42,942 bases of DNA from the NCBI GenBank assembly GCA_017465155.1, contig JAFTWV010000045.1, positions 1-42,942 of the forward strand, given 5' to 3'. The notes under the pieces were generated by a model. The model ran no database searches. It saw nothing but the letters and a program-made list of their open reading frames with translations, and was not told the origin of the DNA. A program made the position numbers and the translations under genes. Positions 6,502 to 35,347 of this stretch are shown here, one piece after another. The DNA is from Clostridia bacterium (lineage in GTDB: Bacteria; Bacillota; Clostridia; Christensenellales; Aristaeellaceae). How positions within the stretch are numbered: the first letter of the stretch is position 1; each line of letters opens with the position of its first letter.

Positions 6502-8481
6502 ATGTTGAAGAAGCTCTGCGTTCTGACGCTGACGATGCTGCTGCTTCTGCCAGCCGCAGCGCTGGCGGATGTAGTCATCAGCGAAGTGATGGCGTCCAAC
6601 GGTACCTATGAGAATGAGGAATCCTATGATTGGGTCGAGCTGCACAACAACGGCAAGAAGGCTGTTGACCTGAGCGGCTGGTATCTGAGCGACAGCAAGA
6701 AGAATCTTCAAAAGTGGGCCTTCCCCAAGGGCACAAAGCTCAAGGCAGGCGGGTATCTCACTGTTTTCTGCACAGGCGAGGATGATATCGATCCCGGCAA
6801 GAACAGTACCTTCTATGCCACATACAGCCTCTCAGCCGAGGGAGAAACGCTGTATCTCTCAGATGCTCAGGGAACGCTCATCCAGAAGCTGGAATATCCC
6901 CGGCAGTACGGCTGTGTCAGCTATGGTTTGCCCTCGGGCGGCGGCGACTACGGCTATTTTGCGAATGAGACGCGGAACAAGAAGAATGATACAGCTGCCT
7001 ATCCGGGACGCACCGAATCTCCGGGCATTGCTACGACTGGCGGCTTCTATCCGGAGGGTGTGACAGTTCAGGCGACCGGTCCCCGGGGGGCGGTGCTGCG
7101 CTATACCACCGACGGCGAGACGCCTACTGCCCAATCGGAGGTTTTTCCGGCTGCAGGCCTGACGGTCAGCAAGACCACTGTGCTGCGGGTCCGTGCCTTC
7201 CGGGAGGACGAGGTCCCCTCGGTGACGGTCAGCGCCACTTACCTGGTGGAGTCAGAGCAGCTGACGCCCGTCGTATCCCTTGTGACAGACGACAAGTACC
7301 TGTTCAACAAAAAGACAGGCGCGCTCGTCAAGGGAAGCGGGGATACGCCCAATTACGCCAAGGAACTGGAATATCCGGTCAACATCGAGTATTTCAATAT
7401 GGAGGGCGTGTGCGAGATCAACCAGATGGGCACGTTTACCTGTTCCGGGCATTCCGCGCGGATCAACGCCCAGAAATCCATTGCCCTTTATGCCCGCAAG
7501 GCCTACGGAAATGAGACCTTCCAGTTCAATCCTTTCCCGACCCGTGATTATACGGAGTACAAGTCCCTTCTGCTGCGCGCGGCTAATTCTGACGCCTATG
7601 CCACCCGTCTGAGGGATATTGTTGCTTCCTCTCTGGCAGAGGGAGAGGGGTTGCTGTATCAGGATCACGTCATCATTCAGGTGTACATCAACGGTGAATA
7701 CTGGGGGCACTACAATCTCCGAGAGAAGATCAACAAGCATTTCATCGCGCAGTTTGAAGGCGTGACGGACGAGAATGACATCGACAGCATTGATATTCTT
7801 GCCCGCACAGGTACCGACCGCTTTACCCAGAATGGCGATAACGAGGACTGGCTGGCGTTGGCGGATTTCTGCAAGAAAAATGACCTGAACATTCCCGAAA
7901 ACCTTGCCTATGTCGAGGAGCGGCTGGATATCGACAGCATGTTCACCCACGCAGCCTACCAGATCATTCTGGGCAACGTGGACTTTACCAATGTGCGCGT
8001 TTACCGCGTGCCGGGAGGCAAGTGGAAGTACCTGCTCTTCGATGTGGAGGCCTGCTGGCGCAATCTGGACAAGACTCCGCTGGAGTACTACATCAAGCCG
8101 GTCAAAAACAAGATCAACGGTTTCCGTCATGAACCGCTCAATGCGCTGCTTGCCGTGCCTGCGTACAAGGCGAAGTTTCTGAACCGTGTTGCGGAAATTC
8201 TGGAGGATCACTTCCAGTGGCCGGAGGTGGAGGCGAAGTTCGATGCAGTCACGGCGGTGCTGGAGCAGATCCTGCCGCGTCATATTGAGCGCTGGGACAA
8301 TATGAAGCTCAAGAACTGGCGCACCAATGTCAGTGCCACAAAGTATTATGCCCGCGTGCGTCCGCGAAAAATCCCTGAACTCCTGAAGGCGGCCATGAAG
8401 CTGACCAACGCGGAGGTCGAGGAATACTTCGGCGAGGTCCTGGCCCTGCTGGAGGTCACAAACGCCCGACAGGGAGATTGA
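6502..8481 (+). CDS. Secreted LTD-CotH protein
   Basis: This 659-residue exported protein begins with a signal peptide (about 1-22, cleavage near AALA-D). A lamin-tail domain follows (about 22-150; VISEVMASNG, YDWVELHN, VDLSGWYLSD). Next is a short chitobiase-C-terminal-like beta domain (about 175-250; YTTDGETPT), and then a CotH domain (about 270-600) with YTEYKSLLLRAAN, YINGEYWGHYNLREKI and LLFDVEACW. CotH proteins are atypical protein kinases, first described for spore coat proteins; LTD and chitobiase-like domains suggest attachment to the surface or a glycan. It shares this architecture with the larger protein at 13592-16810, so the two are paralogues. There is no anchor or sortase motif. 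Its 3' end runs into a hairpin-rich region. Confidence 0.88.
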   Translation: MLKKLCVLTLTMLLLLPAAALADVVISEVMASNGTYENEESYDWVELHNNGKKAVDLSGWYLSDSKKNLQKWAFPKGTKLKAGGYLTVFCTGEDDIDPGKNSTFYATYSLSAEGETLYLSDAQGTLIQKLEYPRQYGCVSYGLPSGGGDYGYFANETRNKKNDTAAYPGRTESPGIATTGGFYPEGVTVQATGPRGAVLRYTTDGETPTAQSEVFPAAGLTVSKTTVLRVRAFREDEVPSVTVSATYLVESEQLTPVVSLVTDDKYLFNKKTGALVKGSGDTPNYAKELEYPVNIEYFNMEGVCEINQMGTFTCSGHSARINAQKSIALYARKAYGNETFQFNPFPTRDYTEYKSLLLRAANSDAYATRLRDIVASSLAEGEGLLYQDHVIIQVYINGEYWGHYNLREKINKHFIAQFEGVTDENDIDSIDILARTGTDRFTQNGDNEDWLALADFCKKNDLNIPENLAYVEERLDIDSMFTHAAYQIILGNVDFTNVRVYRVPGGKWKYLLFDVEACWRNLDKTPLEYYIKPVKNKINGFRHEPLNALLAVPAYKAKFLNRVAEILEDHFQWPEVEAKFDAVTAVLEQILPRHIERWDNMKLKNWRTNVSATKYYARVRPRKIPELLKAAMKLTNAEVEEYFGEVLALLEVTNARQGD

Positions 8482-13591: not shown

Positions 13592-16500
13592 ATGCAGCCT
13601 GTACAGCCCGGAAAGCGAACGGTACGGCGTGCCCATAGCACGCAGCCTGCCGCTGAAAAGCCCGCAGCGGTCAAACGCCGCCAGCGGATGCGCAGGATCG
13701 GCAATATGTTTGCCATGGTGTCCCTGCTGGTGATCGTGCTCCTGATCGTGCTGGTCAGCCCCAAGGAGCCTGTTCGCCATGCCTACTATACCATCAGCAC
13801 GGAGGATAACCTCGTCCATACCAGTGCCTCCAGCGGCAGTGAGTATGAGGGACTGGTGATCAGCGAGGTCATGACCTCCAACCAGACCGCTATGCCCGAT
13901 GAGAACGGCGAATTCTCCGATTGGATCGAGATCTGGAACAGCTCTCCCAATGCGATCAATCTTGAAAATGTCGGCTTGAGTGACGATGAGCTGTCCATCA
14001 GCTTCCTCTTCCCCAAGATGACCATCGCGGCGGATGAGCGTATCGTCGTCATCTGTGACAAGACGAATCAGGCTGTCGCAGGAAAGCCGCTGCATGCCAA
14101 GTTCGGTCTGAGCACCAACGGCGAGACCATCTCCCTCTACGATCCTAATGCGTATCTGATTGATTCCGTCAAGACGCCCATCATGTCCGCAGACGAGAGC
14201 TATGCGCTGACCTCGGACGGGAAATGGGTGCAGACCGCCGAGTTCAGCCCGGGGTATGCGAATACCTCTGAGGGTTATCTGGCCTACCGCAACGCTACCA
14301 TGGTGACGGACGGCGCGCTGATTATCAGCGAGATCTGCCCCGATCCCCTGACTGGTTACCGGGACGCTGACGGCGAGCTGTGCGACTGGGTGGAGCTGTA
14401 CAACACCACTGATCGGCCGATCAGCCTTGCCAATTATGCCCTGTCCAACAAGGAAAACAAGCCCTTGAAGTGGCGCTTCCCCGAGGGTGCGTATGTCGCC
14501 CCCCACGGCTACTACATCGTCTACTGCTCCGGCAAGGATGTGGTGATCAACAGCGTTACGGATGTGCCGCACGCGAGCTTCCGCATCAGCGCGGAGCATG
14601 ACACCATCGTGCTTTCCGACAGCCGGGGCCGTCTGGTGGATCGCGTCACCATTGACAATATCCCCGAGGACGCCTCCTATGCCCGCAATGCGGACGGCAG
14701 CTTCTCCGTCCATCTGCGTCCCACGCCGCAGCTGCCCAACACTACCAGCGGCGCGAACCAGATGGACGTGTACCTGCGCGCGCTGAACGATACGGGCGTA
14801 TATATCACGGAGGTCATGGCCTCCAATGATTCCACCGAGACTACCGTCGGCTCCGATTTTGTGGATTGGATTGAGCTGTACAATCCGACGGCGGTCACGG
14901 TGGATCTGTCGGGGTTCGGCCTGTCTGATAATCTGGGCCGTGCCCGCAAGTGGCAGTTCCCGGCCGGGTCGTACATTGCGCCGGGGGAATACAAGATCAT
15001 CTGGTGCGACGGCGATGCAGCAAAGAACACCGCCTCCGAGCCGCATACCTCCTTCAAGCTCCTCAAGGGCGGCTCTGAGACGCTTGTGTTTGCAGACCCG
15101 ACGGGTAAGATTCTTGACAAGGTCGTGCTGCCTGCGGTACCAACCAATGTGTCCTACGGCCGCACAATGGGGCGTGAGGGCTTTTTTTATTACGACGTAC
15201 CCACGCCCGGCACGCAGAACGGGAGCAACGGTTTCCTTGGCTATGCGGAGGCTCCTTCGCTGACGGTTGAGCCGGGCATGCATGATCAGGGCATCAAGGT
15301 TGGCTTCACTGTTCCGGAGGGCACGACCGTCTTCTATACCACGGACGGCTCCACGCCCACCCAGTACAACAGCACGGCGTATGTCGGCCAGCAGATTGAG
15401 CTGAACTTTACAACGGTGCTTCGTGCCCGGGCCTTCCCGGTTGACCCGCAGTATCATGAGAGCGCTGTCGTCACCGGCACCTATCTCATCAACGCCTATC
15501 ACGAGATGCCTGTGGTGTCCGTCACGATCGATCCGTACCTGCTGTGGAACGAGGAAAATGGCATGCTCGCTGCCGGCCCGGATATGGTCAAGGAGGGGCC
15601 CGGTATCCTGCCCTTCCTGAACACGATCTATCGTGCGTACGGCAAGGAGCCCCGTGAGGGCTACATGGAGTATTACGATACGGAGGGCAATCAGGTGCTC
15701 AGTCAGGGCGTCGCGGTTGGCCTGATCGGCGATTACTCCCTTGACCTGCCGCAGAAGTCCATGAAGCTGCGCGCAAAGTCCCTCTACGGCGAAAATACCT
15801 TCGACGCCGCGCTCTTCGCGGATCGTCCCTATACGGAGTACAAGTCCCTTGTCCTGCGTAATTCCGGCAACGACGGCGTCTGGACCCGCCTCAAGGACGG
15901 CTTCCAGTCCCGGCTGCTGGACAAGTATGGCGCGACGGTCATTCATCAGGCGTGGATGCCTGTTGCTGTGTACCTCAACGGTACCTACTGGGGCCACTAC
16001 AACCTGCGTGAGCGTGTTGACCGCTTCTTTGTTGCCCAGCACGAGGGCCTGACCCTTGACGAGGCGGAGAACATGGACATCCTTGTAGGAAACGGCACCG
16101 TGGAATTTGGCTCCAATACCGAATACCGCGCCATGATCAAGAAGCTCAAGGCCAGTGATCCGGCCAACAACGCGGAGGATCGTGCCTATCTGGACGCGAA
16201 TGTCGATGTAGACAACCTGATCGAATACATGGCACTGGAGATGTTTGTGGGCAACTCCGACATTGGTAACACCCGCTTCTACCGTCTCCACGGCATTGAT
16301 CCGGAGACCGGCGAGCGCTACAAGTGGAAGTGGATCTGGTACGACGTGGACTATGGCCTGTGGGAGTCCTCCTTCAACAGCGCTTACAGCTACACAAAGC
16401 AAAAGGGCATGGGCCAGAAGAACATCGACAACACCATCTTCATGACCGTGCTGTCCGTTCCTGAATACAAGGATCGTTTCCTGCGCAAGCTCGGCGACAT

Positions 16501-16810
16501 TTTCCAGACCTTCACCACCGAATACATGACGGAGGTATTGGCCGAATGCAAGGCGGAAATTGAGCCGGAGCTGAAGATGCACTTCGCCCGCTGGGCGGAG
16601 GAGCATGACCAGATGGTCATCGCCGAGTGGCCCACGACAGTAGACGGCGCATACCGCTACTGGGAGCGCCACATCAGCCGACTGCAGAACACCCTCAAGA
16701 AGCGTCCGAATCTGCTCTGGGGCTATGTGAAGGAAGCATTCAAACTGACCGATGCGCAGATGATCGAGTATCTTGGCCCGCAGCCGGAGATGCCCGCAGA
16801 TGCGGTGTAA
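13592..16810 (+). CDS. Membrane-anchored triple-LTD CotH protein
   Basis: This 1072-residue protein has a basic cytoplasmic N-terminus (1-36) and one transmembrane helix (about 37-57). Three lamin-tail domains follow (about 85-200, 240-370 and 400-540), each with a VISEVM/ISEIC/ITEVMASN start and a DWIELYN-type strand. A chitobiase-C-terminal-like domain (about 555-645, YTTDGSTPT) precedes a CotH kinase-like domain (about 690-1010) with YTEYKSLVLRNSGN, YLNGTYWGHYNLRERV and WIWYDVDYGLW. The catalytic part should lie outside the membrane. The RBS AAAGGATG precedes the ATG. DUF4956 and VTC polyphosphate polymerase genes follow, so it is probably the outer component of that cassette. The C-terminus is acidic and unanchored. 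Confidence 0.9.
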   Translation: MQPVQPGKRTVRRAHSTQPAAEKPAAVKRRQRMRRIGNMFAMVSLLVIVLLIVLVSPKEPVRHAYYTISTEDNLVHTSASSGSEYEGLVISEVMTSNQTAMPDENGEFSDWIEIWNSSPNAINLENVGLSDDELSISFLFPKMTIAADERIVVICDKTNQAVAGKPLHAKFGLSTNGETISLYDPNAYLIDSVKTPIMSADESYALTSDGKWVQTAEFSPGYANTSEGYLAYRNATMVTDGALIISEICPDPLTGYRDADGELCDWVELYNTTDRPISLANYALSNKENKPLKWRFPEGAYVAPHGYYIVYCSGKDVVINSVTDVPHASFRISAEHDTIVLSDSRGRLVDRVTIDNIPEDASYARNADGSFSVHLRPTPQLPNTTSGANQMDVYLRALNDTGVYITEVMASNDSTETTVGSDFVDWIELYNPTAVTVDLSGFGLSDNLGRARKWQFPAGSYIAPGEYKIIWCDGDAAKNTASEPHTSFKLLKGGSETLVFADPTGKILDKVVLPAVPTNVSYGRTMGREGFFYYDVPTPGTQNGSNGFLGYAEAPSLTVEPGMHDQGIKVGFTVPEGTTVFYTTDGSTPTQYNSTAYVGQQIELNFTTVLRARAFPVDPQYHESAVVTGTYLINAYHEMPVVSVTIDPYLLWNEENGMLAAGPDMVKEGPGILPFLNTIYRAYGKEPREGYMEYYDTEGNQVLSQGVAVGLIGDYSLDLPQKSMKLRAKSLYGENTFDAALFADRPYTEYKSLVLRNSGNDGVWTRLKDGFQSRLLDKYGATVIHQAWMPVAVYLNGTYWGHYNLRERVDRFFVAQHEGLTLDEAENMDILVGNGTVEFGSNTEYRAMIKKLKASDPANNAEDRAYLDANVDVDNLIEYMALEMFVGNSDIGNTRFYRLHGIDPETGERYKWKWIWYDVDYGLWESSFNSAYSYTKQKGMGQKNIDNTIFMTVLSVPEYKDRFLRKLGDIFQTFTTEYMTEVLAECKAEIEPELKMHFARWAEEHDQMVIAEWPTTVDGAYRYWERHISRLQNTLKKRPNLLWGYVKEAFKLTDAQMIEYLGPQPEMPADAV

Positions 16811-16849
16811 GATTTCCCTTGTAAATTGCTGAAATATGCGCAAAAATGT

Positions 16850-16878
16850 TTGCGGATACGGCAGGAATGCTGTATAAT
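16850..16878 (+). promoter_or_regulatory. Strong promoter before the DUF4956 gene
   Basis: TTGCGG (16850-16855) and a perfect TATAAT (16873-16878) are 17 bases apart, 57 bases before the start codon. The membrane protein and polymerase can therefore be transcribed without the CotH gene. No terminator separates the CotH gene from this promoter. Confidence 0.75.
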
Positions 16879-16934
16879 GGACAAAGCGGGCGCAAGTCCG
16901 AGTGAATGTGATTGAGTATGAAGGAGGAACCTCC

Positions 16935-17660
16935 ATGTCTGATCTGGCTCTTCTGAGCAGTCTGGGCGTCGGCAATCTGACCGTGTCCGGTACCGGCAAT
17001 AACAATGCCCTGTCTGCGTTTTTCGCGGAGCAGTTTGCCAACCTGACGCCCTGGTCCGTGGGCTTGGGCTTGATCTTTGGCTTTATTGTGGGCATGATCA
17101 TTGCCTTTGTGTACAAGCGCTGCTATCGCGGCGTGCTGTATAGCCCGAACTTCGCCGTCACGCTGGTGATGATGACCCTGATCACGACCCCGGTGGTTAT
17201 GTGTATCGGCTCCAACATCGCGCTGTCGATGGGCATGGTGGGCGCGCTGTCCATTGTCCGCTTCCGTACTGCGGTCAAGGATCCGCTGGATACTGCCTAT
17301 ATGTTCTGGGCGCTGACCATGGGCATCCTGCTGGGTGCGGAGCAGTATATCATCTCTCTGGTGGTGGTGGCGGCGATCTCCGTCATCCTGTTCCTGCTGA
17401 ACATGTTCAAGTTCTCCAATCCCAATGGCTATCTGCTCGTCCTGCACTATGACGAGGATGCGGAATACGACATCAATCAGCAGCTGCGCCGCAGCGTCAA
17501 GCACCGCCGTCTGCGCTCCAAGACCGTCACCCGCGCTGGTGCTGAGATGACCTACGAGGTTCGCCTGGACAACAAGCAGGATCTCGTTGCTCTAATGCTT
17601 AATATCGAGGGCGTTCACGACGCAACCCTTGTCGCCTGCCAGACCGAAGCCGGCGCTTAA
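16935..17660 (+). CDS. DUF4956 membrane protein
   Basis: This 241-residue protein has four predicted transmembrane helices between about residues 35 and 160. The family hallmark SMGMVGALSIVRFRTAVKD sits at the third, with charged residues close to or inside the membrane. A soluble C-terminal domain (about 165-241) carries paired basic residues (RRSVKHRRLRSK). AAGGAGG before the ATG at 16935 sets the start. The function of DUF4956 is not established. Its position directly upstream of a VTC-type polymerase suggests that it forms the membrane part of that system, perhaps a channel or transfer subunit. That role is inferred by analogy with yeast VTC, where catalytic and membrane domains act together. 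Confidence 0.88.
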   Translation: MSDLALLSSLGVGNLTVSGTGNNNALSAFFAEQFANLTPWSVGLGLIFGFIVGMIIAFVYKRCYRGVLYSPNFAVTLVMMTLITTPVVMCIGSNIALSMGMVGALSIVRFRTAVKDPLDTAYMFWALTMGILLGAEQYIISLVVVAAISVILFLLNMFKFSNPNGYLLVLHYDEDAEYDINQQLRRSVKHRRLRSKTVTRAGAEMTYEVRLDNKQDLVALMLNIEGVHDATLVACQTEAGA

Positions 17661-17678
17661 GGGGCGCTGCCCCTTAAG
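17656..17678 (+). other. Hairpin overlapping the DUF4956 stop codon
   Basis: A perfect 10-bp stem, CTTAAGGGGC (17656-17665) with GCCCCTTAAG (17669-17678), includes the stop codon in its first arm. There is no T-run, so it looks like an RNA-stability structure or part of the adjacent repeat rather than a terminator. Confidence 0.5.
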
Positions 17679-17867
17679 GATCCCTGCCAGAGGGATTTAT
17701 CCCTCTGGACTCCCTTTTCGCGATTGAGGCGCGTGCCTTCGGTTGTGATTGCACGCGCGTGAGGGATGCCCCTTAAGGGGCCCTGCCGGAGGGGGTTGTC
17801 CCTCTGGACTCCCTTTTCGCGATTGAGTCGCGTGCCTTCGGTTGTGATTGCACGCGCGTGAGGGATG
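17669..17867. repeat. Two tandem copies of a 99-bp repeat
   Basis: Bases 17669-17768 and 17768-17867 are direct repeats with a period of 99, differing at a small number of positions, mainly near the start. Each copy begins GCCCCTTAAGG and includes CTCTGGACTCCCTTTTCGCG and GTGATTGCACGCGCGTGAGG. They fill most of the gap between the DUF4956 and VTC genes. The repeat keeps an open reading frame on the minus strand because 99 is a multiple of three, but no ribosome binding site or protein family supports coding. Confidence 0.9.
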
Positions 17868-17922
17868 GCTGGTGTGTTTTGCAGCAGCACAGATACTCTT
17901 CTTTGAAAGGAGGCGTTGAGCC

Positions 17923-18630
17923 ATGGCGGCCAATATTCCGCTTCGGCATGAGTTGAAGTTCTTTATCAGCGAAATGCAGTATCATGTTTTATCCCGCCAG
18001 CTGGATCACGTCCTCTGGCGCGATCCCAACGGCGATGAAAACAATGAGTACCACATCCGCAGTCTGTACTTTGACACCATTTTCAACGATGCGTATTATG
18101 ATAAGCTGGATGGCGTTCAGAACCGCAATAAGTATCGTATCCGCATCTACAACCTGTCAGACCGGGTGATTAAGCTGGAATGCAAGACCAAGGTGGGCAG
18201 CCTGATTTCCAAGCGCAGCCTGTCCATTCCACGGGATCTGTGCGATCAGCTGGTTGCGGGTGATCCCACTGATCTGGAACGTACCAGCAGCGGCCTGCTG
18301 GGCGATATGTATCGAGAGATGACCTGTGGGCTGCTGCGGCCGGTGGTTATTGTAGACTATGTGTGCGAGGCGTACCTGCATCCGGCGGAGGAGGTGCGCA
18401 TCACCTTTGACAAGCAGCTCCGGACGGGATTGCGCAGCATCGATCTGTTCAATCCGAACGTCCCGACGATTTCCCCCTTTGACAACAATGAAATGATCCT
18501 TGAGGTCAAGTTCAACCGTGTGATGCCCCCCTATATCCGCGATCTGCTGTGCACCTACTGCCCGAATGCGCTGCAGAGCGCCATCAGCAAATACACCTGG
18601 TGCCGCCGTTTTGAGGGGATGGAAGCATGA
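17923..18630 (+). CDS. VTC-domain polyphosphate polymerase
   Basis: This 235-residue protein consists almost wholly of a VTC domain, a triphosphate-tunnel fold. Tunnel residues are visible in order: RHELKFFIS near residue 8, YHIRSLYFDT near 42, NKYRIRIYN near 68, IKLECKTK with SKRS near 84-98, VDYVCEAY, VRITFD and MILEVKFN near 192. In yeast Vtc4 the corresponding basic residues bind ATP and the growing chain, and the domain makes polyphosphate from ATP. There is no transmembrane helix, so membrane association would need the upstream DUF4956 protein. AAAGGAGG precedes the ATG. No promoter was found in the 260-base gap, so co-transcription with DUF4956 is likely. Confidence 0.9.
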   Translation: MAANIPLRHELKFFISEMQYHVLSRQLDHVLWRDPNGDENNEYHIRSLYFDTIFNDAYYDKLDGVQNRNKYRIRIYNLSDRVIKLECKTKVGSLISKRSLSIPRDLCDQLVAGDPTDLERTSSGLLGDMYREMTCGLLRPVVIVDYVCEAYLHPAEEVRITFDKQLRTGLRSIDLFNPNVPTISPFDNNEMILEVKFNRVMPPYIRDLLCTYCPNALQSAISKYTWCRRFEGMEA

Positions 18631-22347: not shown

Positions 22348-24852
22348 TTATGCGTGAAACCGGAAGGACGTGAAGCGGAAGGCCGGTGCGCTGTACACAA
22401 GATACACATTGTGCGTGCCAGTGATGGTCTCGGGAAGGGCAAGCGTAACCTCATTGCCGCCAAATGCCTTGCTTAGCGGAAGGACGGCGGTGGGGACAGC
22501 CTGCACATTGTCCAGCACAATGGATACCGTGCCGTCACAAACAGAACGATATCTGACCGTCAGTGAGTTCGCACCCTCTGTACCAAAGTTGACGCCAGAG
22601 AGCATTGACCAGCTGTTGGCGACCTGTGTATAGAGCACCATGCCGCTGCGGTCAGGCTGCATGGTCACGCCTGCGATGACGGCTGCTGTCGTGGCGGGGA
22701 TATCCTGATAGGGATCAAGAGCCTGTACCTGCGGCACGCCTGTGCGCGTTCCCGCGATCATCGCAATGTGGCCGTCTGCCTCTACATCCATCTTGTCAAT
22801 GAAGGTGCAGCGGTAACCACTGCCAAGGCCGATGGCGCGTTCCAGCGTCTGCGTGTGATAGGCGATGTACCACTGATCCCGGAAGCGGAACATGCAGTGA
22901 TGATTGTTGCCGCCCACGCCGAAGTAGTCGGCAGGATTCTTCAACACGCGATCCGCATACACAAAGGGGCCGAGGGGCGAATCTGCCAGCATGGTGCAGA
23001 TTTCGCCGTTCCGGAAGGGGACAGGCGCATCTGCCGGGACGCTGAAGTTGGTGCAGTAGGAGAAAATGTATTTGCTGCCAGCCTTCACGATACCGCTGTC
23101 CTCGAACAGGTAGGGCGGATTGAAGGCGACAGGCTCACCATTGAGGGAGATCATGTCAGGGCCAAGCTCGCAGCAGCGTGCCGTGCCAGGATCGGCGGCC
23201 CGGCCTTCCGGAACACCGCCGCCCACGTAGATGTAGGCACGCCCGTCGTCATCTACCAGCACAGCAGGATCAAAAAGCCATGTTACGTCTGCGCAGTTGG
23301 GAGTAGCGCGGTTGATGAGCGCGTGCCCCAATGGATCGCGGAAGGGCCCGGCAGGGCTGTCTGCTTCCAGCACGCCGATGCCATTGCCGCTATCGGCAAA
23401 GTACAGGAAGAACTTCTCGCGGCCATTGACATTCTTGTGCGCTGCAGCGGGGGCCCAGGAATTCCGTGCCCATTTGGCAGCGCCATGGGGACCAGCCGCA
23501 AGAATATCGCCATGATCCGTCCAGTTCACCAGATCTGCGGAGGAGATACAGCGCAGCCGGTCAATGGTGCCGTAGCGGTTCGGGCCGACGGAACCGTCAT
23601 CCCCGTAGGTGTAGAAGTCGCCGGTCATGTACAGGTATACTCGGCCGTCGTAGGGCATGGCCCAGGGATCTGCGCCGAAACGTTGTGTCATGACGGGATT
23701 GTGATCATTGGAAGGCTTGTAGGATTGCTCGATGGGGGAGACAGACGGCAGGTCAACGGCATCAAGGCTTGCAGGGATGGCTTCGTCCAGCAGCGCACCG
23801 AAGAACGCGGGCTTCGGCCGCAGCATGCCATCGAAGAAAAGCGGGTAGGTCGGGCCGTTCCAGCCCATCAGCCAGCTGTGATCGTCAGCAAGGCCCCAGA
23901 GGGTGATGCTGTCAATCGGCAGTCCTTCCCGGCGCAGACGGCGCATCATGGCGAAATAATCGCGATAGCGCACGCCCAGCTTCATCTGGGATGCAGGATC
24001 CGCACCGGGGACTCGGATGTCCATCTCCGTGACTTGCAGCGTCAAGCCCAGCGCAGCGAATTCACGGATGGCCCGCTCGTAGTCGGCGAAGTCGGGGTAA
24101 TCCATGCCGATATGGGTCTGCATACCTACGCCGTCGATCACACCTTCGTCAGCAAGACGCTTCACCAGTGCATACACCCAGGGATACTTATCCGGCTGCG
24201 CGACGCTGAAATCATTGTAGTACAGCTGCTGTCCCGCAGTCTGATACTTCCGGGCGGCGCGGAAGGCCAGTGATACGAAATCCTCGCCGAGGGTCTGATA
24301 CCAAAGGCTCTTGGTGCGGAACATGTTTGCCGCCTTATGATCAGGCTCAATGGCCTCGTTCACAACGTCCCATGCGTACACGAGTCCCGGCCAGGTCTGA
24401 TTGACGTAGGTCATTGTGTCGGCAATGCTGTTTTCCATGCGGCGGATGATTGTTTCCCGGTCGGCGAGGGGGGCGTCCGGTTCAATGGCCCAATCCTTCG
24501 CAAAGAACCAGCGGGGCGTCTGGTTGTGCCACACAAGGACGTGGAAGCGTACGGCCATGCCGTGCTTCTGTGCATATTCCATCAGCGGAACAGCAGGGGA
24601 GAAGCACAGGGCTGCGCGGTCATGACTGCCGGAGGCCAGCGTTGCGCTGCGATCCAGCAGGCACTCGGGCTTCATCACATTTTCCGCGGTGATGGAGCTG
24701 AAGTGCTTGCGAACAGCGCCGTCACATTCCGGACGGAACAGCCATTGCGGCGCGACAGCTACGCCCATGCGGAAGTCATCTGCGTAGAAATCCTTCAGGG
24801 AGGGGATCAGGTCTGTTCTGCCCGTGTGGAGATAATCACGGTAAGCGCTCAT
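22348..24852 (-). CDS. GH10 xylanase - GH43 - CBM6 fusion enzyme, cytoplasmic
   Basis: This 834-residue multidomain glycosidase has a GH10 barrel (about 20-355), with acid/base Glu166 in WDVVNEAIE and nucleophile Glu276 in QVTEMDIR. A GH43 five-blade propeller follows (about 385-710), with a probable catalytic Asp395 in GADPWAMP, DPAVLVDDDG in the middle and a Glu in EDSGIVK. A C-terminal CBM6-like domain occupies about 725-834. GH10 cleaves xylan backbones, and GH43 members remove xylose or arabinose. There is no signal peptide, so the substrate is probably an imported xylo-oligosaccharide. AAGGAGAG precedes the ATG. A terminator lies upstream, so it has its own promoter or depends on read-through from the transporter operon. 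Confidence 0.92.
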   Translation of the reverse strand: MSAYRDYLHTGRTDLIPSLKDFYADDFRMGVAVAPQWLFRPECDGAVRKHFSSITAENVMKPECLLDRSATLASGSHDRAALCFSPAVPLMEYAQKHGMAVRFHVLVWHNQTPRWFFAKDWAIEPDAPLADRETIIRRMENSIADTMTYVNQTWPGLVYAWDVVNEAIEPDHKAANMFRTKSLWYQTLGEDFVSLAFRAARKYQTAGQQLYYNDFSVAQPDKYPWVYALVKRLADEGVIDGVGMQTHIGMDYPDFADYERAIREFAALGLTLQVTEMDIRVPGADPASQMKLGVRYRDYFAMMRRLRREGLPIDSITLWGLADDHSWLMGWNGPTYPLFFDGMLRPKPAFFGALLDEAIPASLDAVDLPSVSPIEQSYKPSNDHNPVMTQRFGADPWAMPYDGRVYLYMTGDFYTYGDDGSVGPNRYGTIDRLRCISSADLVNWTDHGDILAAGPHGAAKWARNSWAPAAAHKNVNGREKFFLYFADSGNGIGVLEADSPAGPFRDPLGHALINRATPNCADVTWLFDPAVLVDDDGRAYIYVGGGVPEGRAADPGTARCCELGPDMISLNGEPVAFNPPYLFEDSGIVKAGSKYIFSYCTNFSVPADAPVPFRNGEICTMLADSPLGPFVYADRVLKNPADYFGVGGNNHHCMFRFRDQWYIAYHTQTLERAIGLGSGYRCTFIDKMDVEADGHIAMIAGTRTGVPQVQALDPYQDIPATTAAVIAGVTMQPDRSGMVLYTQVANSWSMLSGVNFGTEGANSLTVRYRSVCDGTVSIVLDNVQAVPTAVLPLSKAFGGNEVTLALPETITGTHNVYLVYSAPAFRFTSFRFHA

Positions 24853-24950
24853 GTCGTATCTCTCCTTTTTCAGTGATGCGTTGGCTGAAAATAGCGGTGT
24901 CAGGCCGCATTTTTGTGCGCAAAACGCGGTTTCAGCCGTGTTCTGGGTAC

Positions 24951-24983
24951 AAAAAGGGCAGGATAGCGAGTGCTATCCCGCCC
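24951..24983 (-). terminator. Terminator between the solute-binding protein and GH10 genes
   Basis: On the minus strand an 11-bp stem with one mismatch (24956-24966 with 24973-24983) is followed by TTTTT (24951-24955). It would end the transporter transcript. Confidence 0.8.
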
Positions 24984-25018
24984 AAGCGGTTAACCAATGA
25001 TCACGTTTTCAGGCGTGA

Positions 25019-26401
25019 TTACTTGTTGGCCTCGTCCAGGTAGGACTGCCAGGTGGCGCGCATGGCTTCAGCCTGCTCCTGAGGAGTGGTGGCCTTGCCG
25101 TAGACATCCCAGATGTACTGCTTGCCCAGATCGTAGCCGGGAACCAGGTCGGAGTACCACACGAACTGGGTCTCGTTGGCGCGCATCATGGCGATGGTCT
25201 CATCCACAGCGCGGAAGTCGCAGTACTTGCCGTACATATCGTTCTTCCAGTCGTCGGTCTCGCCGTAGCCGGGGGTGGGATTGGTGTAGAGGTTGAAGGC
25301 GAAGGCGATCTTCCAGGCGCGCTCAGCGTCGTAGTTGGCGGGGATCACGTACACGTTGTCGGTGGGAGCCCACTTGTAGTTGTCAGCCTTGGGGCCCTTG
25401 GGGAACATCACGAAGCCATAGTCATCGTCCATCTTCTTCAGGGAGCTGGAGAAGTACTCTTCGTGGCACTGCAGGGCAACTTCGCCGTTGATGAAGGCAG
25501 ACTCGAAGTAGTTCCACTCAGCGCCTTCGGGAGCGGGCATTTCGTACTTGGAAACCAGATCCATGACCCAGTTCATCGCCTCGAGGAAGGCGTCGGACTC
25601 GGCCGCGTTGTAGTACTTGCCATTCTCGTCAACCTGCACGAAGCCGGCATTGTTGGAAACGACAGCAGCGGGCAGCAGGTGGGAGGAGAAGGACATCATG
25701 GCGTACTTGTCGATGATGCCGTCGTTGTCAGTATCGCGATGCAGCTTGGACAGCAGCTCTTCGAAGGCTTCCCAGGTCCAGGTGCCGTTGGCCTGCATGT
25801 CGTAGATGGACTCGGGGTCAACGCCGGCCTCGGTCAGCAGACGCTTGTTGAAGAAGATACCCTTGCGGGCCTCGGCAGCCTGAGCGCGCATGCCGTAGAC
25901 ATTGCCATCCTTGGTCAGCAGGCTGGAGACGATGTCGTTCCACTTCTCGTCTTCGAAGTTCAGGCAGTCCAGGGAGGACAGGTTGTAGAACAGGTCAGCC
26001 TTGAAGGGGCTCAGGTAAGCGCCGGCACGCAGCACCCACACGTAGTTCTCTTCGGTGCCGGTGGTGGCGATGGTGGTGAAGTCCGTGGGAGAGTCGCCCC
26101 AGGTGGTGACAGCGGCGTCGCGGATGGTGAAGTTGTAGGTCTCCTCGATCCACGTACGGTACTCCTCGGTCGCTTCGGCGGAAGCAGTCTCGGCATTGCC
26201 GATGTTGTCGTGCCAGTCAGCAGACCACCAGTCGGCAACGGTGATCACCATGCCGCCCAGATCGTAGGGCTTGCCGGTCGCGGGATCAATCTGGATCTCA
26301 ACGCCATACTCTTCGTAGGGGTTCTCGATGTCTTCGGCCATCGCGGGGACGCAAGCCAGAAGCATCATCAGGGCCAGGAGCATTGCCAGGGTCTTTTTCA
26401 T
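25019..26401 (-). CDS. ABC transporter solute-binding protein (family 1)
   Basis: This 460-residue exported protein has a 22-residue signal sequence. A Cys in LLAC could be a weak lipobox, but AMA-E is also a good signal peptidase I site, so lipid attachment is unsure. The mature part has the two-lobe fold of family 1 sugar-binding proteins, with KGIFFNKRLLTEAGV, GTWTWEAFEELL and FINGEVALQ at the usual places. A DTDNDGIID segment resembles a calcium loop. It delivers an oligosaccharide to the two permeases encoded upstream (26560-28591). AAGGAGG lies before the ATG. It is separated from the permeases by 158 bases containing a stem-loop and a 44-bp inverted repeat, suggesting separate control of its level. 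Confidence 0.92.
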   Translation of the reverse strand: MKKTLAMLLALMMLLACVPAMAEDIENPYEEYGVEIQIDPATGKPYDLGGMVITVADWWSADWHDNIGNAETASAEATEEYRTWIEETYNFTIRDAAVTTWGDSPTDFTTIATTGTEENYVWVLRAGAYLSPFKADLFYNLSSLDCLNFEDEKWNDIVSSLLTKDGNVYGMRAQAAEARKGIFFNKRLLTEAGVDPESIYDMQANGTWTWEAFEELLSKLHRDTDNDGIIDKYAMMSFSSHLLPAAVVSNNAGFVQVDENGKYYNAAESDAFLEAMNWVMDLVSKYEMPAPEGAEWNYFESAFINGEVALQCHEEYFSSSLKKMDDDYGFVMFPKGPKADNYKWAPTDNVYVIPANYDAERAWKIAFAFNLYTNPTPGYGETDDWKNDMYGKYCDFRAVDETIAMMRANETQFVWYSDLVPGYDLGKQYIWDVYGKATTPQEQAEAMRATWQSYLDEANK

Positions 26402-26460
26402 GGGTATACCTCCTTTAGATTATTCTCATGCCCATCAGGGCCAAGAAACGAAGTGGAAAT

Positions 26461-26504
26461 GTGCAAAATGGGTATAATATATCTATATTATACATATTCT
26501 GCAC
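26461..26504. promoter_or_regulatory. 44-bp inverted repeat with TATAAT in both arms
   Basis: The two 21-base arms (26461-26481 and 26484-26504) are inverted copies with 3 mismatches around a 2-base centre. Each arm contains GTATAATATA and ends with GTGCA. The element lies 60 bases upstream of the solute-binding protein gene, whose -10 region may be within it. It is AT-rich in a GC-rich neighbourhood, and could be a promoter-operator or a mirrored pair of promoters. Confidence 0.6.
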
Positions 26505-26517
26505 AAATTCATTGATT

Positions 26518-26552
26518 CCTGCTGGAGAGAAATATTTTTTCTTTCCGGCAGG
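26518..26552 (-). other. Stem-loop between permease and solute-binding protein genes
   Basis: A 15-bp imperfect stem (two mismatches) with a short AT-rich loop lies immediately after the permease stop codon. There is no strong T-run on the minus strand. In sugar ABC operons such a structure often protects or trims mRNA so that the binding protein is made in excess. Confidence 0.5.
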
Positions 26553-26559
26553 CTGCGGT

Positions 26560-27618
26560 TTACTTCAGGCCGGTGGAGGAAATGGATTCCACAAAGCCCT
26601 TCTGCGCGAACAGGTAGAGCAGCAGCAGCGGCGCAATGACCATCAGCGTGCCGGTGGACACGAACTGCTGCTTGTGGCCCATTGTTGCCACATTACCAGT
26701 ACCTCTGATGGATTCGAGGTACTTGCTCAGCGCTTCCGCGATGCCGGAGAGCTTCATGGAAAGCATCGGCAGCGAGGTGTCGCGGATGAACATCTTGGTG
26801 TAGAAGGTGTCCGTCCACTGCCACACGAAGGCGAACAGGAAGCAGGAAACGAGGATCGGCACCGCGTCAGGCAGGATGACCTTCCAGAAGGTCTTGAAGG
26901 TCGAGCAGCCGTCCACATAGGCGGCCTCCTCCAGCGACTGGGGTACGCCCGCGAAGAACTGACGGATCATGTAGATGTACAGACCGTTCTTCAGACCCAT
27001 ACAGGTGGCAGACATCAGGAAGTAGGGGAGGGGAACGTGGGTCAGGCCGAACAGGCTGATGTAGAACTTGCTGCTCAGCAGGCTGATCTCCTCGCCGCCG
27101 TTGAACATCCCCACAATGCCCAGCGGATTGAAGTGGGAGAAGGTCAGGTGCAGGGCGGTGGAGATGGTCTGGGGCGGAATGACAACCGTCAGGATCACTG
27201 CGAAGAACCAGAATTTCTTCAGCGGGAAATTGAAGCGGGCAAAGCCGTAGCCAACCAGCGTTGCGGAAGCAACCTGCAGCAGTGATACGCACAGGCTGAT
27301 GACCAGCGTGTTGGTCAGCGACTTGCCGTAATTCAGCAGCGCAGGCAGCGCGGCGGTCGTGTAGTTTTCCACCGTCAGGTGACGGGGAATGGAGATGATG
27401 GTGGAGTCGTACAGGTCCAACTCGGTCATGAAGGAGACGGAAATCTTCGACAGCAGCGGCTGCACGATCATGAAGCACAGGCCGAACAGCAGCAGGAAGC
27501 GGATGAACTTGTAGGCCTTGTTTCCGATGGTCTTCTTGAGCAGGTAACCGCCGGATTTTCTGTTTCGCACCCAGAAGCTTTCGGAGGGGCGAGCATGTTC
27601 AATGATTTTCTTACTCAT
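26560..27618 (-). CDS. Carbohydrate ABC transporter permease (MalG-like)
   Basis: This 352-residue membrane protein has about six transmembrane helices. The ATPase-contact EAA loop reads EEAAYVDGCSTFKTFWKVILP near residue 235. It has the MalG features of a C-terminal end without a further domain and an extended cytoplasmic N-terminus of about 35 residues. It would pair with the permease encoded just upstream (27611-28591), overlapping by 8 bases, to form the channel of the second ABC importer. Between helices there is a long insertion containing FNGGEEISLL, not usual in short MalG proteins. No ATPase gene is in the window. Confidence 0.92.
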   Translation of the reverse strand: MSKKIIEHARPSESFWVRNRKSGGYLLKKTIGNKAYKFIRFLLLFGLCFMIVQPLLSKISVSFMTELDLYDSTIISIPRHLTVENYTTAALPALLNYGKSLTNTLVISLCVSLLQVASATLVGYGFARFNFPLKKFWFFAVILTVVIPPQTISTALHLTFSHFNPLGIVGMFNGGEEISLLSSKFYISLFGLTHVPLPYFLMSATCMGLKNGLYIYMIRQFFAGVPQSLEEAAYVDGCSTFKTFWKVILPDAVPILVSCFLFAFVWQWTDTFYTKMFIRDTSLPMLSMKLSGIAEALSKYLESIRGTGNVATMGHKQQFVSTGTLMVIAPLLLLYLFAQKGFVESISSTGLK

Positions 27619-28591
27619 CAGTAGCCACCACCTTCGAAATGATCAGGGCACAGATGCCGATCATGGCCAGGGTTACCAGGAAGTAAATCCAGGACATGGC
27701 AGACATGTGGTCGTAACGGAAGTTCAGCAGCTTCTCATCCAGCAGGTCGGTCAGATCGCCGCCCATCTTGGTGAAGAAGTCGATGATCGTGTAGATGATG
27801 TTGACGATCAGCAGGGGAGAGACCATGGGGAAGGTGATCATCCAGAAGGCCTCCCACTTGGTGCAGCCCTCCACGTCAGCGGCCTCGTAGAGGCTGGCGG
27901 GAACGTTCTGCAGACCGGAGAGGAACACGACAATCTGGATGCCCGCGCCCATAACGATGTCATACACCTCAGCAATCAGCTCAAAGACAATGTCCAGCAG
28001 ATCGCCGCCAAGGCCGGTCAGGCGCAGGATTTCCATCATCGAATCGGTGACGGTGAAGGGCGTCTGCTCGGAAATCAGCTCCTGCATGCCCTGCATGAGG
28101 GTATTGTCCGTTTCCAGATTGACCAGCACGCCGCTGGAGAGAATGACGGGCAGGAAGAAGATTGCACGGACGAAGGCGCGGCCCTTGAACTCCTGGTTCA
28201 GCAGCAGTGCGATAACGAAGGCGACAACCAGAATGGCGATGGTGTGGGTCGCAATCTTGGTGATCTCTTCAATCAGCAGCTGATTGAACGTGGGGTCGAC
28301 GGTCAGGGCGTGCACGTAATTGTCCAGGCCCAGCAGGTCGGGGATGGCCTTGAACACCGCGCTGAAGCCGCCGGCAGCATAGATGCCGCCGAGAGTCTGT
28401 CCATCGGACAGGCCGAAGTAGGAATTGAAGATGAAGCCGTTCTTGGAGACGATGACCTCGCTGAAGGACATCTGCAGCGACATGATTAGCGGAGCCGCCA
28501 TGAATACGACAAAGCCGATGATGAAGGGCATGATGAACAGGTAGCCGGAAACGGCCCGCCTGCCCTTCATGGACAAGCGCAGGTTCTTCAT
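27611..28591 (-). CDS. Carbohydrate ABC transporter permease (MalF-like)
   Basis: This 326-residue membrane protein has six predicted helices and the EAA loop SLYEAADVEGCTKWEAFW near residue 235. A first helix starting GYLFIMPFIIGF is typical of MalF/UgpA-type subunits. A region of about 80 residues between helices one and two is enlarged and should lie outside the membrane. The start codon overlaps the DUF5696 stop in an ATGA junction, with AAAGGAGG upstream. It forms a heterodimer with the product of 26560-27618 and works with the solute-binding protein at 25019-26401. Confidence 0.92.
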   Translation of the reverse strand: MKNLRLSMKGRRAVSGYLFIMPFIIGFVVFMAAPLIMSLQMSFSEVIVSKNGFIFNSYFGLSDGQTLGGIYAAGGFSAVFKAIPDLLGLDNYVHALTVDPTFNQLLIEEITKIATHTIAILVVAFVIALLLNQEFKGRAFVRAIFFLPVILSSGVLVNLETDNTLMQGMQELISEQTPFTVTDSMMEILRLTGLGGDLLDIVFELIAEVYDIVMGAGIQIVVFLSGLQNVPASLYEAADVEGCTKWEAFWMITFPMVSPLLIVNIIYTIIDFFTKMGGDLTDLLDEKLLNFRYDHMSAMSWIYFLVTLAMIGICALIISKVVATDE

Positions 28592-31176
28592 TCAATCGCC
28601 TCCTTTGCCGTATAGCTGCGGGCGGGGATGGTCACGCCGTCCACGCTGGCCTCTTCGTAGCCGTAGTTGACGTAAACGCGGATGCCGTTTTCGTAGGTGG
28701 TGATGGTCACATCGCCAATGCGTTCATGGCCGGTCATCTTCTGGTTGAAGGTGCCGCTCAGGGCCTGATTATACGCCTTGACCACGTTGATCATGTCGTC
28801 ATAGATGATGCTGACGTCTGCGCCGTAGTACTCGGAGAACCAGGAATCCTGCAGCTCCTCCACATCGTCGGCCATGAGGGTGTACTGCAGGCTCGCGCCC
28901 ATCTCGGCGGAACGAAGCAGCAGGGTTTCGCGGTCGTCTGCCAGATTGATTGCAGAGCCTGTATAAACCACGGAGCCGTGCAGCGCAGCAGTGTAGAAGG
29001 GCACATACTCATCCAGAATGCGGTACTGCAGGCCGTCGAAGTCCAGATCGGTCACGATATCAGCCAGCACGGCGGCGTAATCGTTGCCCTGACGGATCAT
29101 GACAGACTGGCCCTTTTCCTGCAGCTCCCGGATTTTCGCGATCTGCTGGAGGCGGACCTCCTCGCGGGTGACCAGGTCCTTGGCATTGTAGTCAGCGCTC
29201 AGCATGCCGCCGAGATCGCGGAAGGAAATGCCTGCAGCGCCATAGGCGGTGACAGCGCCGCTCAGTACGTCGGCATTCTTCATTGCCAGCGCAGGCTTGA
29301 GCAGGTAATAAGTGTCGCGGTCTTCAATCGGGCCGTACCAGATGGCGGAATACTCGGGAATCTCCGCTTCCTCGCGGGTGGTGTGCTGGGCTGCATCGCG
29401 CATGGCGAGGAAGCCCTCCAGCATGCCGCTGTCGCGGGCAAACTGGGTCAGACCATCCAGATACAGCGGTACGCCGGCAGCCTTGGCAGCCTCGGCAAAA
29501 GCCTTGAGCTCGCGTTCAGAGCCCAGCTCGCTCATCAGACGGATCTTGTTGAGGATGGTCTGGTTCAGGCCGCCGTTGGTCCAGCCGGTGTAGCGGATGG
29601 AGAGGTTCGGCAGCTTTTCTGCAGCCAGCTTATTCAGCAGCTCGGTGGCCTGCTTGTAGGTCGTCAGGGGAATCGGCACGTTGGTCGGTACGCCCATGCG
29701 CTGCTGTACCTTGTCGATGGCGCCCACCAGCTCGATCACCGTGTGCGCCTCGGCGCTCAGCTCGCGCTGCATCTCGGGATGCGAAGCCAGCAGGTAATCG
29801 CGGTAGGCGGCAGCCATGTCCATGTAGCTGTCGCTGGCCACGAAGCGGTAGCGCTGGCGCAGCATTGCATCAGGCAGCTGCTGCTCGAACATGTAGACAT
29901 TGTTGTTCGTGCGCTCGGACACATCGTAGGAGTCGCCGTGGATGATGGCGTATACCGCGTTGGCGGAGTTATAGGAGCCGGCGCCCGCGCGGCCTGCGAT
30001 ATCAGCATTGATTCCGCCCCAGGACGCGCCTTCCTCCATGATGCACACGAAGGAGCTGCCGCCGGTAGCCATGCCGAAGACGGGGAAGCTCATGCGGGTT
30101 TCGCTCACGACCTCTTTGCGGATGGCGGCCCAGTCCCAGCCATACATGTTGGCATAGTAGGGATTCTGCTTGGTTTTGCCGTTGTTGTAGCGGATGATGG
30201 CGCCGCTGCCCTCGGGCACAAGGATGTAGCCCGTTTCATTGGAGCCGGCTGCACCGAAGGCGGGCAGCACGTTCAGGGCCGTGGGCGGATAGTCGGGGTT
30301 GTAGGTGATCTCAGACAGAGGCACTTCCACCACCAGATCGTCGCCTTCCAGACGGTAGGCGATGGTCACGTTGAAGATAGGCTTGTCCGTTGCACCTTCA
30401 ATCTCACCCGCGCGGACGATACGGCTTTCGTCGTACTCGTAATCGGCCATCGTGTAGCCGCCGGAGATCATTGCTTCCTCCAGCTTGGCGGCTGCGTTGG
30501 CTTTCATGTCCTTGTTGCGCAGCACCCAGACGATCTTGCCTTCCTTCAGATCGGGGTAGGCGGCTTCCAGTGCTGCAGGATCGTCCTTTTTGCCGTATTT
30601 GGCGGGATTGTATTTCTTGTAGGCGTCCTGTACGGTGCGCTTCGCTTTCTTGTCCAGCTTGTCCAGGATGGCCTGGAAACGGTCATCCGTCATGGCTTCG
30701 GGGAAGAGATAGGTGCGGGCGATGTCACCGATGGTGAAGGTTACGCGGATGGTATCGCCCTCGTGGGAAACCTCGTACAGGCTGTTGGTGACCGACTTGG
30801 CAAAGCTGCTGAAGGTGGTCTGCTTGCCGGTGTTGTTCTTGTAGTCAAGAGTCAGGATGGACTGCAGGCGCTCCTTCTCGTTAAGCATGGTGCTGCTGTC
30901 GCTTGCCACGCCGGGAGCGGAAGAGGACCAGACCTTGCCGGTGCGGTGATCGGTCAGGGTGAAGTGGGTGGTAGCGGGATCAAGGGTGAAGGTCAGGTTT
31001 TCGCTGGTGAGGGTGAAATCGCCCTCAGCGCCGGTGTAACGCTTGATGTCCGGCACGAAGGTCTTATCGTAAGCGGAGGTATCAAAGAGGGGAATGAAAA
31101 CCTTCGTCACGCACAGAAACAGGGCCAGGAGAAGAACCAGGCCGAGTACGATGCGCCAGATGATGCGTCGTTTCAT
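28588..31176 (-). CDS. Membrane-anchored DUF5696 protein, possible glycosidase-like fold
   Basis: This 862-residue protein has one N-terminal transmembrane helix (about 6-28) and a very large extracytoplasmic part. The first half (about 50-330) looks like a beta-sandwich with strands such as FTLTDHRTGKVWSS. The second half has alternating strand-helix spacing like a TIM barrel, with SIRYTGWTNGG, PLYLDGLTQF, GISFRDLGG and SADYNAKD as conserved-looking acidic patches. I recognise it as DUF5696 from this cluster type, whose function I do not know to be established. The barrel-like layout suggests a membrane-tethered glycoside hydrolase or carbohydrate-binding relic. It sits between a YIP1 gene and the second permease pair, overlapping the latter by 4 bases. 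Confidence 0.8.
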   Translation of the reverse strand: MKRRIIWRIVLGLVLLLALFLCVTKVFIPLFDTSAYDKTFVPDIKRYTGAEGDFTLTSENLTFTLDPATTHFTLTDHRTGKVWSSSAPGVASDSSTMLNEKERLQSILTLDYKNNTGKQTTFSSFAKSVTNSLYEVSHEGDTIRVTFTIGDIARTYLFPEAMTDDRFQAILDKLDKKAKRTVQDAYKKYNPAKYGKKDDPAALEAAYPDLKEGKIVWVLRNKDMKANAAAKLEEAMISGGYTMADYEYDESRIVRAGEIEGATDKPIFNVTIAYRLEGDDLVVEVPLSEITYNPDYPPTALNVLPAFGAAGSNETGYILVPEGSGAIIRYNNGKTKQNPYYANMYGWDWAAIRKEVVSETRMSFPVFGMATGGSSFVCIMEEGASWGGINADIAGRAGAGSYNSANAVYAIIHGDSYDVSERTNNNVYMFEQQLPDAMLRQRYRFVASDSYMDMAAAYRDYLLASHPEMQRELSAEAHTVIELVGAIDKVQQRMGVPTNVPIPLTTYKQATELLNKLAAEKLPNLSIRYTGWTNGGLNQTILNKIRLMSELGSERELKAFAEAAKAAGVPLYLDGLTQFARDSGMLEGFLAMRDAAQHTTREEAEIPEYSAIWYGPIEDRDTYYLLKPALAMKNADVLSGAVTAYGAAGISFRDLGGMLSADYNAKDLVTREEVRLQQIAKIRELQEKGQSVMIRQGNDYAAVLADIVTDLDFDGLQYRILDEYVPFYTAALHGSVVYTGSAINLADDRETLLLRSAEMGASLQYTLMADDVEELQDSWFSEYYGADVSIIYDDMINVVKAYNQALSGTFNQKMTGHERIGDVTITTYENGIRVYVNYGYEEASVDGVTIPARSYTAKEAIE

Positions 31177-31197
31177 AGAAATGGCTCTCTCCTTTCG

Positions 31198-33359: not shown

Positions 33360-33382
33360 GTTGCGGTCGTCCTTTCTCGCAA

Positions 33383-34327: not shown

Positions 34328-34328
34328 A

Positions 34329-35267: not shown

Positions 35268-35347
35268 GACCGCTTTTCCCTCCTATTCTTAATGGATGCA
35301 ACGGTTCGGGGGAGGGGGATGGCTGCGGGCCGATCCCCGTGCCGGGC

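What the first reader, a model, noticed from the sequence alone, without database searches (positions are those of the whole stretch)
13592..18630. CotH - DUF4956 - VTC cassette: a possible membrane polyphosphate/phosphotransfer system
Three genes in a row encode a membrane-anchored outer protein with a CotH kinase-like domain, a four-helix DUF4956 protein and a soluble polyphosphate polymerase. The polymerase has no membrane segment, whereas in yeast VTC the same domain works with membrane domains that move the chain across. I infer that DUF4956 supplies the membrane part, and that CotH uses a product or modifies surface proteins. A second, smaller LTD-CotH gene at 6502-8481 may be a secreted partner. 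The function of the set is, to my knowledge, not established.
Basis: partly seen in the sequence, partly recalled or inferred. Interest (0 to 1): 0.8.

Follow-up and report, generated by a model that had tools for sequence, protein, structure and literature searches.

The report
Polyphosphate enzyme paired with membrane partner
A gut bacterium carries a three-gene set in which a likely phosphate-chain-making enzyme is tied to one particular membrane protein and a surface protein; enzyme and membrane protein keep together across many bacteria while the surface protein can be swapped, which looks like a machine that delivers phosphate chains to the outside, though that is not yet shown.

Summary
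The three genes are real and well placed: CotH (hydrophobic anchor, three LTD, CotH domain), DUF4956, VTC. The set itself is in print: Whitfield 2020 and an S. intermedius paper of 2025 describe CotH, polyphosphate polymerase and DUF4956 beside Pel genes, with mutants.

Added here: (1) in 299 genomes of the phylum VTC and DUF4956 occur in the same 46, and 53 of 55 VTC genes have DUF4956 within 2 kb; (2) they co-inherit (128 pairs, three matching clades) and a few natural fusions exist; (3) the third gene varies: CotH, Cthe_2159 or LRR-LTD, and all 9 VTC genomes without CotH have Cthe_2159; (4) Pel is not the rule: PelG found near 7 of 94 three-gene cassettes, no genome-level association; (5) three Paenibacillus genomes fuse PelG to CotH.

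Best reading: VTC makes polyphosphate, DUF4956 takes it to or through the membrane, a surface protein uses it. Export is inferred. Two linked-chain models gave no confident contact (pTM 0.60), and the published VTC-gene mutant still aggregated and made Pel. The window's VTC has Cys where 54 of 55 survey copies and 120 of 120 close relatives have Arg.

The parts
13592..16810 (+). CotH surface protein: N-terminal hydrophobic segment (about aa 39-55, by eye), three LTD domains, CHB_HEX_C_1, CotH kinase-like domain at aa 713-1040
   Evidence: Asp columns D890 and D918 invariant in the 32 CotH proteins aligned (of 36 in hand) and kept here
15728..16711 (+). CotH domain inside the gene above
   Evidence: the family profile matches spore coat CotH structure 5jd9 at 1.9e-52
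16902..17660 (+). DUF4956 membrane protein: hydrophobic domain plus C-terminal ACT-like domain
17259..17267 (+). codons of the RFR motif (R120, F121, R122), at the end of a predicted helix of the membrane part
   Evidence: the cytoplasmic side is inferred, not measured
17661..17922 (.). gap between DUF4956 and VTC, holding two 99-nt copies (93% alike) of a dispersed hairpin repeat
17923..18630 (+). VTC-domain (polyphosphate polymerase-like) soluble protein
   Evidence: fold of the close relative L097
18364..18366 (+). codon 148, Cys here; the column is Arg in 54 of 55 survey copies and in 120 of 120 close relatives
   Evidence: the column aligns with the Arg of YNRTAF in yeast Vtc4
6502..8481 (+). 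second LTD-CotH protein; no link to the cassette shown

Best explanation
VTC and DUF4956 are two subunits of one machine at the cytoplasmic membrane. VTC, in the cytosol, builds polyphosphate from ATP. DUF4956 anchors it and takes the chain to or across the membrane, with the invariant RFR pair at the cytoplasmic mouth and the ACT-like domain as a contact or control domain. On the outside an exchangeable surface protein (CotH in the window) uses or holds the product; for CotH the bold form is that polyphosphate serves as phosphoryl donor where there is no ATP. Shown here: the pairing, co-inheritance, a few fusions, partner exchange, kept active-site residues in relatives and the Vtc4-like fold. 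Inferred: polyphosphate as product, passage through the membrane, use by CotH. My rough odds: one functional unit 0.97; VTC makes polyphosphate 0.75; DUF4956 moves it 0.45; CotH uses it 0.3.
Against: Two linked-chain AlphaFold models gave pTM 0.60: each half good, no confident placement of one on the other. In S. intermedius deletion of the VTC gene left aggregation and Pel, deletion of DUF4956 raised Pel and deletion of CotH lowered it, not what a simple line from VTC to CotH predicts. PPK1 occurs in 13 of the 46 VTC genomes, the window's included, so VTC need not be the cell's polyphosphate source. The window's VTC has Cys at a near-invariant Arg position. No polyphosphate measurement was made. 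Cut into two clusters, the VTC and DUF4956 trees place 6 of 128 pairs differently. Of the 19 database proteins holding parts of two or three families, at least four whose joints I looked at seem to be deletion or frameshift products.
Confidence: 0.45

Rival explanations
1. DUF4956 is a regulator, not a channel: an MgtC-like membrane protein with an ACT-like domain that senses a ligand and switches VTC on or off, so that polyphosphate stays in the cell and the surface proteins are only co-regulated.
For: ACT-like C-terminal domain, with matches to NikR and to MgtC's C-terminal domain; weak MgtC match; members of a two-component cluster in the sizes of a regulator and a kinase stand near 22 of 55 VTC loci; opposite Pel levels in the published DUF4956 and CotH mutants.
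Against: A pure regulator need not be present in every genome that has the enzyme (46 of 46); the RFR pair in 53 of 53 copies suggests work on an anion in or at the membrane; the partners look like surface proteins.
Confidence: 0.3
2. The set is an accessory of exopolysaccharide, chiefly Pel, production.
For: Published linkage and mutants; PelG next to or fused with CotH in 7 fetched loci; PelG-CotH fusion ORFs in three Paenibacillus records.
Against: PelG and VTC share 2 of 299 genomes, expected 1.7, p 0.68, and only in one of the two (G105) are they neighbours; PelG in 7 of 94 cassette stretches, or 6 of 53 with at least 5 kb on each side (a very divergent PelG could be missed); none found in the window's genome, which is only 68.5% complete. 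Another polysaccharide system was not excluded.
Confidence: 0.12
3. The VTC domain is not a polymerase here but another triphosphate-tunnel enzyme, for example one that hydrolyses or transfers phosphate to another acceptor.
For: The tunnel fold is shared by tri- and thiamine-triphosphatases and class IV cyclases; no activity assay.
Confidence: 0.13

Closest known systems
CotH / poly-phosphate polymerase / DUF4956 accessory genes of Gram-positive Pel clusters (PMC7112168; S. intermedius SIR_1592-1594, PMC12345266)
   Same: the same three families side by side
   Different: no PelG found in the window's genome or near 87 of 94 cassettes; gene order CotH-DUF4956-VTC; a large CotH with three LTD domains; other lineages have Cthe_2159 or LRR-LTD in place of CotH
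Yeast VTC complex (Vtc4/Vtc3/Vtc1; 7ytj, 8i6v, 9umg)
   Same: VTC tunnel domain, conserved tunnel residues in relatives, a membrane partner (inferred here)
   Different: no SPX domain (none found by Pfam) and no transmembrane part in the VTC protein; the partner is DUF4956
MgtC family
   Same: membrane helices followed by an ACT-like domain
   Different: Pfam match below cut-off; paired with VTC in the phylum surveyed
Spore coat CotH kinase (5jd9)
   Same: CotH domain with both invariant Asp residues
   Different: hydrophobic anchor and LTD domains; no spore genes seen beside it
C. perfringens NELoc-2 gene block (PMC2879425, passages)
   Same: VTC genes and CotH close together
   Different: there each VTC gene is followed by a membrane protein that the paper names tubulin/FtsZ; that these are DUF4956 is my guess from size and position, untested

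Membership tests
VTC domain proteins (PF09359) | domain above curated cut-off | tested here: met
   118.3 bits against 23
VTC domain proteins (PF09359) | tunnel residues | tested here: inconclusive
   the columns examined are kept in the window except codon 148, Cys for Arg; 54 of 55 survey copies and 120 of 120 close relatives have Arg there
Eukaryotic VTC complex | SPX domain and own transmembrane part in the polymerase (recalled as the yeast layout) | tested here: not met
   only the VTC domain found by Pfam, no hydrophobic segment
Eukaryotic VTC complex | polyphosphate made and moved across a membrane | not testable with these tools
   needs biochemistry
DUF4956 (PF16316) | domain above curated cut-off | tested here: met
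   52.7 bits against 30.6
MgtC (PF02308) | domain above curated cut-off | tested here: not met
   17.3 bits against 31.4
CotH kinases (PF08757) | domain above curated cut-off | tested here: met
   118.4 bits against 23.8
CotH kinases (PF08757) | two catalytic Asp residues (their role is recalled, not from a call) | tested here: met
   D890 and D918, invariant in the 32 aligned of 36 in hand
CotH kinases (PF08757) | kinase activity | not testable with these tools
   needs an assay
Gram-positive Pel cluster | PelG in or near the cluster | tested here: not met
   no PF16933 match in the window's genome, 68.5% complete, nor in the window by a PelG profile

The most novel reading that the evidence does not exclude
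VTC-DUF4956 is a general bacterial machine that makes polyphosphate and secretes it, with three clades fitted to three kinds of surface receiver (CotH, Cthe_2159, LRR-LTD); with CotH, exported polyphosphate is the phosphoryl donor for phosphorylation of surface proteins or polymers where there is no ATP.
Probability: 0.2. Interest if true: 0.85.

Novelty: new variant of a known kind. Interest (0 to 1): 0.6.

Why it matters
I know of no membrane route assigned to bacterial VTC-domain proteins (recall, plus the searches). A strict pairing with DUF4956 gives that family of unknown function a testable job, explains how a soluble polymerase could deliver its product outside, and frees the set from the Pel system to which it has been tied. 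The exchange of the surface partner points to a general delivery module and to a possible phosphate donor for kinases outside the cell.

Tried and rejected
Pel as the general setting: rejected. VTC as a stand-in for PPK1: not supported, the two co-occur somewhat more than expected (13 against 6.6). The second LTD-CotH gene as partner: no conserved companion of that kind seen in the window's lineage (several stretches there are short). Contact by structure prediction: two linked chains in opposite orders, both pTM 0.60; a surrogate for a complex prediction, inconclusive. A solved relative of DUF4956 by sequence: none at E up to 1. The membrane half of DUF4956 has no row of its own among the 50 shown by VIA-align, where the VTC half fills the list. 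Fusions: of 120 listed proteins (391 matches, only the 7997 candidates with most shared words scored) 19 hold parts of two or three families. I count P0121-P0124 as full length; for P0121 only its domain layout was seen. I printed the joints of seven of the 19: P0122-P0124 are clean, P0125, P0128 and P0130 join broken domains, P0131 looks frame-shifted. The other joints were not looked at; P0133 is nearly full length and P0168 is a fragment with both inner domain ends, so there may be a few more true fusions. P0198 holds parts of all three families with partial domains and is not counted. The Cys at codon 148 may be a sequencing or assembly error; no reads were seen.

Dropped rows: A3 holds 32 of 36 CotH proteins (L056, L065, L075, L087 left out by me as near-duplicate or partial). 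The 128 pairs are from 135 loci (55 and 80); L086, L091, L094, L095, L103, L104 and L151 fell out for a missing or short VTC or DUF4956.

Literature: ten searches. No paper in the held library has both DUF4956 and VTC as words or both Cthe_2159 and VTC; three papers name DUF4956 at all, of which PMC7112168 calls the VTC protein poly-phosphate polymerase. Seen: PMC7112168 passages; PMC12345266 section 20 and passages; PMC2879425 passages; PMC10657179 passages; the rest as listings with abstract starts.
Full report
Check of the observation. The first codes for a 1072-aa protein with an N-terminal hydrophobic segment, three lamin-tail domains, a CHB_HEX_C_1 domain and a C-terminal CotH domain; the second for a 252-aa DUF4956 protein; the third for a 235-aa VTC-domain protein with no hydrophobic segment. 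The second LTD-CotH gene at 6502-8481 is real too. By its relatives the host is an uncultured Clostridia bacterium: where the closest VTC proteins have a source name it is Clostridia, Clostridiales or Aristaeellaceae bacterium, and the nearest named loci are MAGs, many from animal gut by their titles. The assembly holds 2.8 Mb and is 68.5% complete.

Prior knowledge. The set is already in print as accessory genes beside Pel loci: Whitfield 2020 lists CotH, a poly-phosphate polymerase, DUF4956 and DUF4832 next to pelDEADAFG in streptococci and clostridia, and in bifidobacteria the same with DUF4832 replaced by a diguanylate cyclase/phosphodiesterase (PMC7112168, passages). In S. intermedius each gene was deleted: aggregation persisted in all four accessory mutants, fell by more than half in 10% artificial sputum medium for the DUF4956 and CotH mutants, and Pel rose in the first and fell in the second; the text I read reports no such change for the VTC mutant (PMC12345266, section 20). 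[quoted passage not shown] the scope of that search is not given in the passages I read.

Survey. I searched 299 genomes, drawn evenly from the phylum, with six families; the handles show the same genomes each time. VTC rings in 46 and DUF4956 in 46, and these are the same 46. CotH rings in 41, 37 of them with VTC, expected 6.3. Cthe_2159 rings in 34, 28 with VTC, expected 5.2. All 9 VTC genomes without CotH have Cthe_2159 somewhere in the genome; 4 genomes have CotH without VTC and 6 have Cthe_2159 without VTC. PelG rings in 11 (10 over the cut-off), 2 with VTC, expected 1.7, p 0.68. PPK1 rings in 43, 13 with VTC, expected 6.6. The genomes are related, so p-values are only indicative. Among the 14 control genomes VTC and DUF4956 ring in the same three.

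Neighbourhoods. I fetched stretches around all 55 VTC places (the window covers its own). DUF4956 stands within 2 kb on the same strand in 53; of the other two, L086 starts at a contig end while the same genome has a DUF4956 at the end of another contig, and L091 is a truncated VTC. CotH stands within 6 kb in 32. Of the 23 without CotH, 14 have a Cthe_2159 cluster member nearby, mostly as the next gene, 5 an LRR-LTD cluster member, and 4 neither (L038, L063, L066, L091). Pfam confirms four Cthe_2159 members and two LRR-LTD members; the rest go by likeness. LTD also occurs three times in the window's CotH. Members of one cluster in the sizes of a response regulator and a histidine kinase stand together within 8 kb in 22 loci (two pairs checked by Pfam).

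Named relatives. VTC is next door in 78, the other two ending at the contig edge; CotH in 66. Gene orders: VTC-DUF4956-CotH 27, CotH-VTC-DUF4956 20 (one with two CotH genes), CotH-DUF4956-VTC 17 (one with VTC split over two frames), without CotH 14, without VTC 2. In the window's lineage the flanking genes differ from locus to locus; an SNF2 helicase gene upstream is shared by the window and five loci, and no other gene family recurs beside the set in more than four of 23 loci, so the three genes look self-contained there.

Co-inheritance. For 128 VTC/DUF4956 pairs the tree distances correlate at 0.92. Seven genomes hold two or three pairs, which removes the species signal: in 17 of 18 comparisons a VTC follows its own DUF4956 better than its paralogue's. 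Cut into three clusters, the two trees agree 105/17/6 with no exception; cut into two, they place the 6 differently. Partners track the clades: clade I has CotH in 89 of 105 and Cthe_2159 in 6, clade II Cthe_2159 in 14 of 17 and CotH in 3, clade III LRR-LTD in 4 of 6 and CotH in 2. The window's pair is in clade I; the second pair of its genome, on contig 98 with neither partner beside it, is in clade II.

Fusions. A database query with a linked chain, which keeps out short single-domain proteins, listed 120 of 391 matches; 19 of these hold parts of two or three of the families. Four have both domains in full: P0122-P0124, DUF4956-VTC and about 93% alike, with clean joints, and P0121, VTC-DUF4956, of which only the layout was seen. 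Four others whose joints I printed look like deletion or frameshift products; eleven were not looked at. In three Paenibacillus records one ORF of 1035 to 1088 aa holds PelG and CotH. Of the two papers in the library that hold both PelG and CotH, a term search of one shows no gene fusion and no Paenibacillus; of the other I read passages and one section.

Pel. PelG was sought with a profile built from the seven PelG copies in hand: 94 cassettes have all three genes, 7 with PelG in the stretch; among the 53 with at least 5 kb on both sides, 6. A very divergent PelG could be missed. The arrangement outside Pel is therefore common in these collections.

The window's own copy. Its VTC has Cys at codon 148, where 54 of 55 survey copies and 120 of 120 close relatives (the best of 3880) have Arg; this column aligns with the Arg of YNRTAF in Vtc4. 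It may be a private variant, a loss of function or an error. The gap before VTC is 262 nt; eight in-frame relatives of the same gene order have 3 to 18 nt and one 78, while the closest, L096, has a long gap too. In the window the gap holds a tandem pair of a dispersed hairpin repeat with two terminator-like hairpins (8 such sites in the region against 3.5 in shuffles). So the window's copy may be a weaker example of the system than its relatives.

Verdict. The finding is right about the genes and about the VTC-DUF4956 partnership, overlooks published work, and goes further than the evidence on function. The new parts are the strict pairing, the exchangeable partner tied to clade, the spread outside Pel, and the fusions.

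Noticed in passing
17668-17865: Two tandem 99-nt copies (93% alike) of a GC-rich hairpin repeat between DUF4956 and VTC. A 14-base core occurs 16 times in the genome and 0 times when read backwards: a dispersed repeat; a similar stretch lies in the same gap in L096 (by eye).
   Followed up: partly
L122:5965-9231, L131:6128-9238, L138:6125-9232: PelG and CotH in one open reading frame in three Paenibacillus genomes.
   Followed up: partly
P0139, P0160, P0206, P0238, P0195 and similar: VTC proteins with N-terminal tails of about 160-290 residues, rich in Lys and Arg by eye in the three printed and without a Pfam match in the five scanned; such tails might bind polyphosphate.
   Followed up: no
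22 of 55 VTC loci, e.g. L041, L054, L061, L063: A response-regulator and histidine-kinase sized pair beside the VTC genes (Pfam-checked in L041 and L061); none called beside the window's set.
   Followed up: partly
22348-40952, - strand: Genes for GH10/GH43, a DUF5696 protein, two transport permeases, a solute-binding and a melibiase protein: looks like a glycan-use region, on the other strand from the cassette.
   Followed up: no
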